A DNA stretch of 64,000 nt from assembly GCA_003667865.1 (NCBI GenBank), contig CP033051.1, forward strand, positions 4,471,001 through 4,535,000, given 5' to 3'. The position numbers and the translations under genes are program-made. Below the pieces are notes generated by a model. That model made no database searches. It was not told the DNA's origin and was given only the letters and a program-made list of their open reading frames with translations. This DNA is from Rossellomorea marisflavi. Lineage in GTDB: Bacteria; Bacillota; Bacilli; Bacillales; Bacillaceae_B. Below, one piece after another: positions 36 through 58,158 of the stretch; position 1 is the stretch's first letter; each line of letters opens with the position of its first letter.

Positions 36-782
36 TTATTCTTCAACATTCATTGTCAACTCAACGAATACCGCAGGACCTGCTTCTTGAGCAGAAGAAA
101 TGTGAATTCCTTCAAGAAGTGTGCCTTTCGAAATTAAAATGTCACCTTTAGCATTGTAGATATCTTTTGTTACTCTTTTCCCTTTTAGAAGCTCTGCTTG
201 CTTTGAACGGATATCTTCAAAGTCCTTATTTGACGCAGGTGCAGAAACCTCTTCAAGAAGCTCTTCTCCAGCAGTAGCTTGGGTGAAAAGATTTTCAAAA
301 GAATCAGCAAAATAATTGCTTGCATCTTCATTAACAATGATAATATCTTTTCCGAATGTCATCACTTGTTGAGCAGCTAGATAAACCTCTTGCTCTTTAA
401 CTTTTAGAACCATCGCTGCAATGTTACCTGTTTCATCATCAACGATATATTCGGTTACGAGTCCGATTAATTGCCCTTTACGCGTCATTACTTTCGTATC
501 AATAATTCTAATTTTTTTATTTACTAATTGATTTGCAATCGGAATTTCATTTAAATCGATTACAGCATTTTCATTTTCAACCGTTACAGCATATTCACCA
601 ATACCGATTACCTTTTTGAAAGGAATTGCCTTTACACTTACTTGCCAATCTTCGTGCTCAATAGTTAGAAAGTCAACAGATCCTTTTTCCGGATTAATCA
701 CTAGTGATTTCACCATTCCAATTTCACTACCATCCGCAATTGTAATAATTGGTAAGCCTCTCATTTCTGAACTCTTTTTCAT
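36..782 (-). CDS. PRC-barrel domain protein
   Basis: A 248-residue soluble protein with two tandem PRC-barrel-like segments, about residues 1-75 (MRGLPI..GSEIGMVKSLVI) and 85-165 (GQLIGLVTEYIVDDETGNI). PRC-barrels are small beta-barrels found in ribosome-maturation and photosynthetic-reaction-centre proteins and in many membrane-associated Firmicute proteins. I chose the ATG at 782 because AGGTG sits 8 nt upstream; GTG at 791 and ATG at 788 are alternatives. There is no signal peptide. It lies 26 nt downstream of the acidic two-TM protein and just ahead of the gene leaving the window, so the three are likely co-transcribed. A pilus-associated role is inferred from position only. Confidence 0.75.
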   Translation of the reverse strand: MKKSSEMRGLPIITIADGSEIGMVKSLVINPEKGSVDFLTIEHEDWQVSVKAIPFKKVIGIGEYAVTVENENAVIDLNEIPIANQLVNKKIRIIDTKVMTRKGQLIGLVTEYIVDDETGNIAAMVLKVKEQEVYLAAQQVMTFGKDIIIVNEDASNYFADSFENLFTQATAGEELLEEVSAPASNKDFEDIRSKQAELLKGKRVTKDIYNAKGDILISKGTLLEGIHISSAQEAGPAVFVELTMNVEE

Positions 783-55017: not shown

Positions 55018-55332
55018 TTAAGCATGTTTTTCTAAAAGTTCAGCTAATGCTTCTTTTGGTTGGAAGCCAATCACTTTATCAACTTCTTGACCGTCTTTTA
55101 GTACGATTAGAGTTGGGATACTCATAACACCATACTTGCTAGCTGTTTCTTGGTTATCGTCAACATTTACTTTAACGATTTTTACTTTGTCACCCATTTC
55201 ACCGTCTAGCTCTTCTAGAACTGGTGCGATCATCTTACAAGGTCCACACCAAGGTGCCCAAAAGTCAGCTAGTACTAAACCTGATTCTGTTTCTGTATTG
55301 AAATTTTGATCTGTTGCATTTGTAATTGCCAT
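55018..55332 (-). CDS. trxA: thioredoxin
   Basis: 104 residues, complete. Reductant for ribonucleotide reductase and other dithiols. Active site WCGPC (about 28-32) in ADFWAPWCGPCKM, cis-proline in MSIPTLIV (about 73). AGGAGG upstream of ATG. Monocistronic. Neighbours uvrC and the etf genes match B. subtilis. Confidence 0.98.
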   Translation of the reverse strand: MAITNATDQNFNTETESGLVLADFWAPWCGPCKMIAPVLEELDGEMGDKVKIVKVNVDDNQETASKYGVMSIPTLIVLKDGQEVDKVIGFQPKEALAELLEKHA

Positions 55333-55491
55333 TTATATTCGCCTCCTAATATATCAAGTATGGTCAGTATATCACCGTTTCATCAGCGATGCTAATATTT
55401 TGCTTCAAAGGTAATATACCCTAAATCGTTATAAATATGTGTTCCTTACTGGAATATTATAGGTGAAATTGTACTAGAACTGCAACTGTAT

Positions 55492-56466
55492 TTATAAGAT
55501 GTCTTGAAAGTGTTTAGCTAGATCGTATGTTCTTGCGCTGTAGTTGCCTTCGTGGGGGATATTTTCACGTCTTATTAAGTATCTTACTGTACTACTTGAC
55601 TCAAGTTGTAAGAATTTTTGTATCTCATCATTCTTCACTTCTTTTTGCATTAGTAGCATATAGTCCAACACGGCTTGTACATGTGCTTCTTGATTCTTTT
55701 GCTTACAGTGTATACAATACCAAGTGGTTCTTAAGCGAATCATCCCGAGATTTTTGCAATAGCTACAAAATACCCCTGGCTTGACCTCTTCATCATGTAT
55801 ACCAAAACGTAGTTTGTTTGGAAATAGTGTTTCATGACTCTTTAACAAAACCCTTTTAAGTTTATTCAGCTGTTTTTTGTCTAAGAATTCTTTCTCCATC
55901 ATATTTTCGAACTCAAGAAAGGTAAAAGGAAGTTGATGAAGGTGAATAACCTTTAAAGGTTCTCCATTTTTATTAGTAGTCTTAATAATTGTAGAGGGTT
56001 TGCTTATTACGATGTAATAAAAAATAGGAATTGGAGGTATTCTCTCTTTTTCGAGGAATGATTTTAATAAAAGACGATGCCTTTTCGCCTGGGATATTGG
56101 ATCTTGAAACCCTTCTTCTTTATTATCTAACACTCTAATTAGCTGGTGAAACTGATTATCAAAAATAACTGTCCCCGCCATATTCTTAACTTCTAAAATT
56201 AAAATAAAATGGTTACAAACAACTAATGCATCTATTTGAAAAAATTGTTCTCCTATTGGCAGCCTTAGACCGTAGTAAATTTGATACTTGTACTGATCTA
56301 AATTCCTAAGTTGCAACTCTAAAAGTTTCTCCCCCTTAAAACCAGCAGTTCGTTTGAGTAAATCATCCTTGATCATGTCAATTTTATCATGTTGCTTGTG
56401 AATTCTTCTTACTAATCCCTCATTCATACGTAATTGAAGAGGTTTTTGTAGCGATTTTATTATCAA
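55492..56466 (-). CDS. NERD-domain protein with C-terminal zinc ribbon
   Basis: 324 residues. Helical N-terminus, then a NERD (nuclease-related) domain at about 45-160: GEKLLELQL, IDALVVCNHFILILEVKNMAG (in part) carries the D..E-x-K core of a PD-(D/E)XK-like fold. The C-terminal third has a four-Cys zinc ribbon (CSYC..CIHC, about 238-262) and a helix-turn-helix-like tail. Function unknown; DNA or RNA processing is a guess from the family. TTG 56466 was chosen because AAGGAGG is 7 nt upstream. It is not in the B. subtilis version of this segment, so probably acquired. Its upstream side is the 21-bp iteron array. Confidence 0.8.
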   Translation of the reverse strand: MIIKSLQKPLQLRMNEGLVRRIHKQHDKIDMIKDDLLKRTAGFKGEKLLELQLRNLDQYKYQIYYGLRLPIGEQFFQIDALVVCNHFILILEVKNMAGTVIFDNQFHQLIRVLDNKEEGFQDPISQAKRHRLLLKSFLEKERIPPIPIFYYIVISKPSTIIKTTNKNGEPLKVIHLHQLPFTFLEFENMMEKEFLDKKQLNKLKRVLLKSHETLFPNKLRFGIHDEEVKPGVFCSYCKNLGMIRLRTTWYCIHCKQKNQEAHVQAVLDYMLLMQKEVKNDEIQKFLQLESSSTVRYLIRRENIPHEGNYSARTYDLAKHFQDIL

Positions 56467-56566
56467 AATATCACCTCCTTCTGATTTCACTCTAAAAGTT
56501 CAATATTTAATTCGAAAATCCTTCATTTTAATTGCTTATTTTCAATTAATTTAAGTAATTTGTATC

Positions 56567-57056
56567 AACTTGTGCTTCTAATTAGATAACTTGTGCATCT
56601 GTTCATAAAACTTGTGCATGTCTTTGCAAAACTTGTGTATCTTTTTAAGAAACTTGTGCATATTACCAAAAACTGTAAACTCAAGCGTCACTATTTTGGC
56701 AGCATGTACTGTAACTAAGCACTAACAGCATAGAAAATCATCTTTTTAAGCATCTTTCTTATCAAACTTGTGCTTCTAATTAGGTAACTTGTGCATCTGT
56801 TCATAAAACTTGTGCATGTCTTTGCAAAACTTGTGCATCTTTTTAAGTAACTTGTGCATTTTACCAGAAATTGTATACTCTAGCAGCACTATTTTGGCAG
56901 CATATACTATAACTCAGCACTAACAGCATAGAAAATCATCACTTTGGCATCTTTCTGATCAAACTTGTGCTTCTAATTAGGTAGCTTGTGCATCTGTTCA
57001 TAAAACTTGTGCATGTATTAGCAAAACTTGTGCATCTTTTTAAGAAACTTGTGCAT
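56567..57056. repeat. iteron array: three 197-198-bp units, each with five motifs 21 bp apart
   Basis: The 9-bp core aacttgtgc starts at 56567, 56588, 56609, 56630, 56651; then 56765, 56786, 56807, 56828, 56849; then 56962, 56983 (agcttgtgc), 57004, 57025, 57046. Spacing is exactly 21 bp inside a unit, and the unit period is 198 and 197 bp. The roughly 95-bp linkers are also conserved between units 1 and 2 and 2 and 3. No ribosome site or credible gene is seen. Confidence 0.9.
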
Positions 57057-57114
57057 TTTACCAAAAATTGTATTCCTCCCCTCCACACAAAAAATTCAAC
57101 TATCCAAACATCCC

Positions 57115-57147
57115 AAACCAAAAAACCCCACGGCAAGCCGCGGGGTT
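57115..57147 (-). terminator. etfA terminator
   Basis: AACCCCACGGC / GCCGCGGGGTT (one mismatch), 2-nt loop extended, T5-6 on the minus strand. Confidence 0.88.
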
Positions 57148-57177
57148 CAACAAACAAAATTCAATTCATAGTACAAA

Positions 57178-58158
57178 TTAAGAACTAGCAACCTTTAACT
57201 TCTTAAACTCTTCTGTAAGCATTGGAACTACTTCGAATAGATCTCCTACGATTCCGTAGTCTGCTACGTTGAAGATGTTTGCTTCAGGGTCTTTGTTGAT
57301 CGCAACGATTACTTTAGAGTTTGACATACCAGCTAAATGTTGGATGGCTCCAGAAATACCACATGCGATGTAAAGGTCTGGTGTTACAACCTTACCTGTT
57401 TGACCAATTTGTAGTGAGTAGTCACAATAATCAGCGTCACATGCTCCACGAGAAGCTCCAACGGCTCCGCCTAGAACGTCTGCAAGTTCTTTTAGCGGTT
57501 CAAAACCATCTTCACTTTTCACTCCACGTCCACCAGCGATAACAACTTTTGCTTCTGATAGGTCTACACCTTCACTTGCTTTACGAACAACCTCTTTAAT
57601 GATTGCGCGTAAATCTTTGATTTCTACAGAAACAGAGCTTACATCACCAGAGCGGCTTTCGTCTTTTTCTAGTGCAGCAATATTGTTTGGACGAATTGTT
57701 GCAAACACGATACCATCTGTAACAATTTTCTTTTCAAATGCTTTACCAGAATAGATTGGACGAGTGAATACTAGGTTTCCGCCACTTACTTCTAGTGCTG
57801 TTGCATCAGAAATTAGTCCTGTGCTTAGTTTACTTGCAATCTTTGGAGATAGATCTTTACCAAGAGCTGTGTGTCCGAACACAATTCCCTCAGGACTTTC
57901 TTGATCAACAACTGCCATGAAAGCTTGAGAATAACCATCTGACGTATATTGTGCAAGCTTCTCATCTTCAACTGTTACAACACGATCCGCACCGTATTGA
58001 ATTAATTCGTTTCCTAAAGCGCTTACAGATTCACCAATTAATACCGCTACTACTTCTCCACCTTCAGAGATTGTTTTCGCAGCTGCAATGGCTTCAAATG
58101 ATACGTTACGTAGTGAACCGTCACGAGCTTCTCCTAATACTAATACTTTTCTAGACAT
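57178..58158 (-). CDS. etfA: electron transfer flavoprotein alpha subunit
   Basis: 326 residues. With EtfB it takes electrons from acyl-CoA dehydrogenases. The C-terminal FAD domain is clear: GGRGVKSEDGFEPLKELAD (about 208), GASRGACDADYCDYSLQIGQTGK (in parts), LYIACGISGAIQHLAGM and VAINKDPEANIFNVADYGIVGD (in parts). Last gene of the fadR-fadB-etfB-etfA group, 42 nt after etfB, with GGGGG upstream of ATG. Terminator follows. Confidence 0.97.
   Translation of the reverse strand: MSRKVLVLGEARDGSLRNVSFEAIAAAKTISEGGEVVAVLIGESVSALGNELIQYGADRVVTVEDEKLAQYTSDGYSQAFMAVVDQESPEGIVFGHTALGKDLSPKIASKLSTGLISDATALEVSGGNLVFTRPIYSGKAFEKKIVTDGIVFATIRPNNIAALEKDESRSGDVSSVSVEIKDLRAIIKEVVRKASEGVDLSEAKVVIAGGRGVKSEDGFEPLKELADVLGGAVGASRGACDADYCDYSLQIGQTGKVVTPDLYIACGISGAIQHLAGMSNSKVIVAINKDPEANIFNVADYGIVGDLFEVVPMLTEEFKKLKVASS

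What the first reader, a model, noticed from the sequence alone, without database searches (positions are those of the whole stretch)
56567..57056. Fifteen 21-bp iterons in three 197-198-bp tandem units
The core aacttgtgc recurs at exactly 21-bp steps, five times per unit, and the unit itself repeats three times with conserved linkers. Exact 21-bp phasing places every motif on the same DNA face. This could be a binding platform for an unknown protein, a partition or silencing site, or a structured RNA source. It sits beside an accessory NERD-domain gene and before the etfA terminator. It is the most regular structure in the window that no annotated feature explains.
Basis: seen in the sequence. 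Interest (0 to 1): 0.68.

Follow-up and report, generated by a model that had tools for sequence, protein, structure and literature searches.

The report
Nuclease gene with private DNA repeats
The 21-base repeat block belongs with the gene next to it: in these bacteria most genes of this nuclease-like family carry a 20-21-base repeat array in front of them, spelled differently from one gene type to another, and the same repeats are scattered round the chromosome, which suggests a partner protein for a class of bacterial repeats whose role was unknown.

Summary
In detail: window 56567-57066 holds 15 iterons (AACTTGTGC + 12 variable bp) in exact 21-bp phase, in three five-iteron units; shuffles give none.

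The genome (genus Rossellomorea) has at least 16 such loci; in 15 the array lies just behind an intrinsic terminator, in one orientation to it.

The neighbouring NERD gene is the key. Of 93 full-length NERD genes from the genus, 83 have a 20/21-bp array within 330 bp upstream; at the same cut-off 8/190 control ORFs and 1/28 NERDs without the zinc-ribbon/HTH tail. Cores differ between paralogs. A second core (TCGCYGWTA) is abundant in 15 genomes: 13 have a NERD with at least three such cores, a 14th a broken one with two; among 21 other genomes one has two cores.

Best reading: the array is the cognate binding platform of the NERD protein (nuclease residues invariant in 93/93). Binding, cleavage and biological role are inferred. 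The repeats fall in the 20-21-nt Bacillus class of Subirana and Messeguer (PMC8161180), for which they found no function. Against: for the window's own core, several array-bearing genomes show no matching NERD.

The parts
56567..56671 (+). unit 1, five 21-bp iterons (ACTTGTGC strand; reads GCACAAGT on the NERD coding strand)
56765..56869 (+). unit 2, five iterons
56962..57066 (+). unit 3, five iterons
56672..56764 (.). linker 1 (locus-specific, duplicated with the unit)
56870..56961 (.). linker 2
57046..57073 (+). terminal iteron plus conserved tail facing the terminator; TTTTACCAA (TTTCACCAA in one) recurs at the end of all 16 arrays seen in this genome
   Evidence: read by eye
57123..57148 (-). 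intrinsic terminator hairpin of etfA (T tract on the - strand, 57115-57122), 49 bp from the terminal iteron's tail
57178..58158 (-). etfA, gene whose 3' end faces the array
   Evidence: name recalled from the sequence and the finding
56495..56524 (-). sigma-H-like promoter of the NERD gene (GAAGGATTTTC 56524-56514, TATTGAACTTT 56505-56495), between array and gene
   Evidence: sigma-H consensus recalled
55492..56490 (-). NERD-domain gene (PF08378): PD-(D/E)XK-type residues E54, D87, E100, K102, Q116, zinc-ribbon-like C242/C245/C259/C262, HTH-like tail; the likely true start is TTG at 56466 after the Shine-Dalgarno AAGGAGGTGA
   Evidence: start choice read from the sequence

Best explanation
The array is the cognate DNA platform of the adjacent NERD protein. 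Shown: NERD genes with a zinc-ribbon/HTH tail are a multi-copy, fast-changing family; most copies carry a 20-21-bp tandem array directly upstream, with a core that differs between paralog groups; for two cores the same repeat is also dispersed in the genome, mostly just behind intrinsic terminators. Inferred: the C-terminal zinc ribbon + HTH reads the core, one protein per two helical turns, so that copies line up on one face; at its own gene the array sits just upstream of a sigma-H-type promoter and acts as an autoregulatory operator; the dispersed arrays load the protein, with its apparently intact PD-(D/E)XK nuclease domain, at fixed chromosomal places in transition or early-sporulation phase. 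What the loaded nuclease does (recombination or copying of arrays, chromosome organisation, or self-marking in defence) is not settled. Order of likelihood as judged here: repeat-maintaining selfish or defence-like nuclease, then origin-domain organiser.
For: 93 full-length Rossellomorea NERDs: best period 20/21/40-42 within 330 bp upstream at 44/84 or more in 83, at 46 or more in 79; same rule in control ORFs 8/190 and 7/190 (the control set includes the array loci themselves), in NERDs without the C-terminal tail 1/28 and 0/28. In 108 NERD loci the best of lags 12-60 is 20, 21 or 40-42 in 102. Outside the genus, tailed NERDs 18/36, tail-less 0/4 (there period 60 was accepted too). TCGCYGWTA: 15 genomes with 12 or more pairs, 13 with a NERD bearing three or more such cores, 0 of 21 others, Fisher 4.5e-8 uncorrected for kinship; at two or more cores 14 of 15 (G032, gene broken) against 1 of 21 (G029). 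Sister species G030 and G032 lack a full ACTTGTGC array at the 9 loci aligned, with remnants at three, and no NERD fetched from them has that core. Nuclease and cysteine residues invariant in 93/93. Sigma-H-like box 36/94 against 1/195 control ORFs and a mean of 0.3 in 100 shuffles. Foldseek of a low-confidence model puts R.BspD6I small subunit first (E 5e-4). HTH similarity tracks array similarity beyond NERD-domain similarity, partial r 0.226, 0/500 permutations.
Against: No binding or cleavage data. G006, G031, G010 and G015 carry ACTTGTGC arrays (12, 7, 7, 2 profile hits) but the NERDs examined there (5 of 9 matches, 2 of 2, 6 of 6, 1 of 1) have no GCACAA upstream (drafts). G017 and G013 keep arrays although their matching NERD is broken. 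A pattern test of ACTTGTGC arrays against NERD core was weak (4/8 against 4/28, p 0.054; the loose pattern also caught unrelated cores). G005 has a NERD with the related core TGGCCC but no ACTTGTGC profile hit. Dispersal was measured for two cores only. The HTH correlation is small and the middle region scores almost as well (0.200). Half of the tailed NERDs outside the genus (18/36) show no array. The model has mean pLDDT 52, its HTH part is below 50, and the best Foldseek hit has TM-scores of only 0.21/0.33. Ten of 93 full-length NERDs miss the cut-off.
Confidence: 0.72

Rival explanations
1. REP/RAYT-like selfish module: the NERD nuclease cuts at or near its iterons and so copies or re-homes arrays behind hairpin terminators; arrays have no host function and decay when the gene is lost.
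For: Patchy, species-specific loci: downstream of etfA the array occurs in 1 of 30 species, and no other NERD match listed lies near etfA as placed. Loss or decay in G030/G032. Local duplication of array plus linker. Several NERD copies contain stops or are in pieces. Arrays sit next to terminator hairpins. Invariant nuclease residues.
Against: No target-site duplication or element boundary was shown; no phage or mobile gene was seen alongside (not searched systematically); the fixed orientation to the terminator in G000 and G017 is not obviously needed.
Confidence: 0.35
2. Chromosome-organising system of the sporulation or transition phase (in the manner of RacA-ram or Noc sites, recalled): NERD binds polar arrays in the origin-proximal half.
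For: G000: 16 of 16 loci have the same polarity to the fork and lie within 1.25 Mb of dnaA (half-length 2.3 Mb); G017: 11 of 13 polar, 10 of 13 within 0.55 Mb of the origin. Sigma-H-like promoter.
Against: Polarity may simply follow gene orientation; the second core type is not polar to its terminators (5' side 9, 3' side 11 of 26); the terminus is assumed opposite, not measured; paralogs differ in core and copy number, unlike a housekeeping organiser.
Confidence: 0.2
3. Neutral satellite: tandem repeats that persist only in untranscribed spacers behind terminators and happened to be near NERD genes.
For: Arrays are intergenic and behind terminators; sizes vary; arrays are absent in sister species.
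Against: 83/93 NERDs against 8/190 other ORFs and 1/28 tail-less NERDs; core more conserved than filler; match of core type and NERD across genomes.
Confidence: 0.06
4. The array is transcribed into small RNAs or forms a structured RNA.
For: Subirana and Messeguer report transcription of the separate 52-nt class in B. coagulans (passages of PMC8625621).
Against: 24 units folded on both strands: 4 of 48 energies lie more than 2 sd below mononucleotide shuffles (counted by hand); no Rfam match at gathering score in 55300-57300.
Confidence: 0.04

Closest known systems
20-21-nt constant-length tandem repeats of Bacillus (Subirana and Messeguer 2021, PMC8161180)
   Same: Period 20-21, several families per genome, species-specific sequence, a short conserved signal, non-coding
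   Different: They name no partner gene and no terminator rule: 'nuclease', 'NERD' and 'terminator' occur 0 times in the main text. Their 2020 paper is not held and was not read
REP/BIME repeats with RAYT (recalled)
   Same: One protein gene with its own repeats, dispersed in extragenic 3' regions, species-specific
   Different: REPs are hairpins handled by a Y1 transposase; here direct 21-bp iterons and a PD-(D/E)XK-like protein
Plasmid iterons with Rep, ParB-parS, RacA/Noc sites (recalled)
   Same: Helically phased direct repeats, or dispersed chromosomal binding sites
   Different: No such gene recognised alongside; paralog-specific cores; nuclease domain
NERD domain proteins (PF08378), e.g. 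SmdA of Staphylococcus aureus
   Same: Domain
   Different: SmdA is a membrane protein in cell division and lacks several conserved NERD residues (passages of PMC9040797)

Membership tests
20-21-nt Bacillus tandem repeats | constant 20-21-nt period with variable sequence | tested here: met
[quoted passage not shown]
   stops in all six frames of the window array
20-21-nt Bacillus tandem repeats | short signal conserved in the repeats of a genome | tested here: met
   AACTTGTGC in 84 in-phase blocks of 21 units
NERD family PF08378 (neighbouring gene) | NERD domain over the curated cut-off | tested here: met
   78.7 bits against 22.1
NERD family PF08378 (neighbouring gene) | PD-(D/E)XK-type residues | tested here: met
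   E54 D87 E100 K102 Q116 invariant in 93 of 93 proteins of at least 300 aa (motif meaning recalled)
NERD family PF08378 (neighbouring gene) | nuclease activity | not testable with these tools
   sequence only
CRISPR array | long direct repeats separated by unique spacers | tested here: not met
   9-bp core, 12-bp filler that recurs between units and loci
REP/RAYT | palindromic hairpin repeats | tested here: not met
REP/RAYT | Y1 transposase partner | not tested
   no search for this family was run
plasmid iteron origin | lies on a plasmid replicon beside a rep gene | tested here: not met
   single 4.59-Mb contig, between etfA and NERD/trxA
structured RNA (Rfam) | match at gathering score | tested here: not met
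   55300-57300

The most novel reading that the evidence does not exclude
A previously unrecognised class of gene-repeat systems: paralogous site-specific NERD nucleases, switched on by sigma-H, each with a private 20-21-bp DNA code written in tandem at its own promoter and at fixed places behind terminators, so that one genome can hold several coexisting codes (up to ten NERD matches per genome). The arrays would hold or direct the nuclease on self DNA (addiction, self-marking or array copying), which would give the enigmatic constant-length satellites of Bacilli a cause.
Probability: 0.45. Interest if true: 0.92.

Novelty: categorically new. Interest (0 to 1): 0.8.

Why it matters
A class of bacterial satellite DNA with constant length and changing sequence was described without partner or function. 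Here a specific nuclease-like family is tied to it by statistics within one genus and, less completely, in other Bacilli, with a sequence-level code (the core) that can be tested by swapping tails or cores. [quoted passage not shown]

Tried and rejected
Coding repeat: 21 is 7 codons and long spurious ORFs exist in Lentibacillus, but G000 arrays carry stops, the long ones (L061, L064, L067, L069, window) in all six frames; some short arrays leave a frame open. Structured RNA. Phage origin: 12 viral-contig stretches with a pair of cores, none with three exact cores in the printed stretch, 10 of 12 with a frame open across it; two single-protein scans found no NERD relative in viral contigs. A general rule of terminator polarity: it holds for the ACTTGTGC type in G000 (15/16; the 1,843-kb locus fails) and G017 (11/13; the 3,130- and 4,614-kb loci fail), but for the TCGCYG type terminators point at the array from either side (19 of 26 with at least one, 7 of 26 with one pointing away, counted by hand from the rows). 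The 1,843-kb array lies between divergent genes. In G017 the arrays at 63.6 and 1,943 kb break fork polarity and lie beside another repeat family. Empty sites: at two of the nine loci (L175, L183) G013 lacks the array too, and L181 had no G013 row, so there gain in G017 is as possible as loss. Other genera with ACTTGTGC: 2 of 398 Bacilli genomes by exact pattern, own included; 4 of 200 in the family of G173 by profile, stricter filters. Four of 14 stretches in the named-genome scan (L083, L085, L088, L089) looked like unrelated repeats and were set aside. The iteron logo was built from triplets chosen for a match to the core, so it does not show core conservation by itself; one search does this without that choice. 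A Fisher test printed set a 44 cut-off against a 46 one and is not used.

Rows dropped before counts: of 110 NERD loci, 1 without tblastn hit and 1 with short upstream; 106 proteins, 94 of at least 280 aa, of which 93 had enough upstream DNA; the residue count uses the 93 of at least 300 aa. The tail-less set is 28 of 30 loci, 2 clipped. Of the TCGCYG loci 26 of 30 were counted, the script leaving out the other four as repeats or too near an end. NERD loci were fetched from 35 of 36 genomes (none from G020), and not for every match; full NERDs with the zinc tail are confirmed in 32 of 36, G028 and G034 having been fetched later and not classed.

Literature: searches (listings). For PMC8161180 I read the abstract, the first of two parts of Results (3.1 to 3.4 and the opening of 3.5), the Discussion, tables and legends, and ran a term search; for PMC6749651, PMC8625621, PMC9040797 and PMC12802215 only passages; for the other papers only the listings. 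No paper linking NERD to repeats was seen in these searches.

Full report
What is there. The window array (56567-57066, + strand) is 15 iterons in three five-iteron units, phase exactly 21 bp, units 198 and 197 bp apart; shuffles give no such pair. In 84 in-phase blocks before the terminal iteron of 21 units of this genome, taken without selecting on the core, positions 1-7 (AACTTGT) are 88-100% identical and 8-9 (GC) about 80%, followed by a T-rich stretch and freer bases. The fifth iteron of each unit has a special end (TTTTACCAA...) that recurs at the end of all 16 arrays seen in the genome (by eye).

Dispersal. The window lies at 4,471,001-4,535,000 of a 4,591,517-bp contig. The genus is Rossellomorea: contig G007:C5 has the length of a contig of R. 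aquimaris AcN21-5 that carries the same array. Exact pairs fall at 15 loci (clustering mine) and a profile adds one at 1,843 kb (which scored 150 of 1776 candidates in this genome, so 16 is a lower bound). Blocks run from about 3 to 14 iterons, one to five blocks per locus, five iterons per unit being the commonest form. With dnaA at 1,073,394, GCACAAGT reads from origin towards terminus at all 16; in G017 (dnaA at 122) at 11 of 13. All 16 lie within 1.25 Mb of dnaA; in G017 10 of 13 lie within 0.55 Mb. The terminus was taken as opposite; GC skew was not examined. Because Bacillus genes mostly run with the fork (recalled) and arrays follow a gene's 3' end, polarity may be secondary.

Place. 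At the first 15 loci a gene points at the array's terminal side (at one, L072, the gene is a short one read from the sequence) and a hairpin with T tract lies 26-131 bp before it. With a stricter finder: G000 15/16 on the expected side and strand, 3, 0 and 1 of 16 in the other three positions; G017 11/13 against 2, 1, 3; 200-bp windows drawn at random from the NERD loci 14/219. Arrays at NERD genes: 39/73 have a terminator in the 200 bp before the array on the NERD strand, 3/73 on the other.

Turnover. R1, a sequence-only profile, hits 11 of 36 Rossellomorea genomes. Downstream of etfA, of 30 species compared within 1.5 kb only the window species has the array. Nine loci of G017 aligned with its relatives show no full array in G030 and G032, with remnants at three; G013 has an array at most of the loci where it could be aligned, but not at two. 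So at several loci the array was lost rather than never gained.

The partner. A search for the window NERD found matches in 36/36 genomes, 1-10 each. Their upstream regions show arrays of other cores: TTTCGCCGTTA, TTCGCTGATA, GACGCAAT, GACGCATA, GGCTGGAT, GTCGATAAT, GGCAGATA, GCATGAT and more. Of 108 loci, 102 have a best lag of 20, 21 or 40-42. Of 93 full-length genes 83 pass 44/84 and 79 pass 46/84; control ORFs 8 and 7 of 190; NERDs without the zinc-ribbon tail, from other Bacilli and one from this genome, 1 and 0 of 28. Among 40 further NERDs of other genera, tailed ones pass in 18/36 and tail-less in 0/4. Lentibacillus jeotgali has a NERD gene (PF08378, 65.6 bits) next to an AACTTGTGCG array.

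Match of core and gene. TCGCYGWTA pairs: 15 genomes with 12-101, 21 with 0-4, reversed-pattern control 0 in all. NERD with three or more such cores: 13 of the 15 and 0 of 21; with two or more, 14 of 15 (G032, broken gene) and 1 of 21 (G029). The fifteenth, G009, is 84% complete. For ACTTGTGC the fit is weaker: intact matching NERD in G000 and G014, a variant core (TGGCCC) in G007, broken copies in G017, G013 and G004, none seen in G006, G031, G010, G015. Relics or an unseen partner are possible; this stands against a strict one-to-one rule.

The protein. NERD domain at 50-163. E54, D87, E100, K102, Q116 and cysteines 242, 245, 259, 262 are invariant in 93/93 proteins of at least 300 aa, the pattern of a PD-(D/E)XK nuclease and a zinc ribbon (recalled); the Lentibacillus protein has D in place of E100. 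A two-sequence AlphaFold model (mean pLDDT 52) gives an alpha-beta core and helices in the tail; Foldseek puts R.BspD6I small subunit first (E 5e-4, TM 0.21/0.33), with R2 protein, Bax1, RecU and Hjc lower at E above 0.001. This is weak support. A sigma-H-like box lies upstream in 36/94 NERDs, 0.3 on average in shuffles, 1/195 in control ORFs; the consensus is recalled. In the window it lies at 56495-56524, about 42 bp from the first iteron. The listed GTG start at 56490 is probably wrong: a Shine-Dalgarno followed by TTG at 56466 fits the N-termini of the relatives.

Mechanism. Shown: association, specificity for the tailed subfamily, different cores per paralog group, co-occurrence of core and gene for one core type. 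Inferred: direct binding by the tail; autoregulation; loading at dispersed arrays; nuclease action. HTH similarity correlates with array similarity after removing NERD-domain similarity (partial r 0.226, 0/500 permutations), but the effect is small and the middle region behaves alike.

Known or new. The repeats belong to the 20-21-nt class of Subirana and Messeguer (PMC8161180), who suggest a protein polymerising on DNA or small RNAs and name no gene in what was read. The NERD link was not seen in the literature searches run. I therefore rate the gene-repeat system as categorically new, while the repeat itself is a member of a described class.

Noticed in passing
G017 loci L175, L182; also G013, G030, G032: A second interspersed repeat (GTCCAGCTCC...GGCTCGAGGTCATAAG...AAAAAGGC...GCGCCTTT) occurs in dozens of copies, often in tandem at about 126-bp steps, with a hairpin; two polarity-breaking arrays lie beside it.
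   Followed up: partly
L082 2641-3114 (Lentibacillus jeotgali): Another intergenic repeat beside the 21-bp arrays, listed as an ORF with a repeated HPRAKFR motif.
   Followed up: no
G000:C1:1701642, 2484987, 3883345: Three 263-aa frames with near-identical weak DnaA-domain scores, perhaps copies of an insertion-sequence ATPase (guess).
   Followed up: no
G017 arrays: Iterons alternate AACT/TTGT before TGTGCC, coupled to the preceding base (A or T), as if an A- or T-tract is needed on either strand.
   Followed up: no
window 56490-57178 and orthologues: The etfA-trxA spacer takes inserts: in G008 and G024 trxA is about 600 bp away, and in G011, G029 and G033 it was not found within 1.5 kb.
   Followed up: partly
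window 545-597: A 24-bp tandem repeat of 2.2 copies.
   Followed up: no
genus-wide: Several NERD genes contain stops or are in pieces, and pairs of NERD paralogs about 10-14 kb apart in the same orientation recur in several genomes.
   Followed up: no
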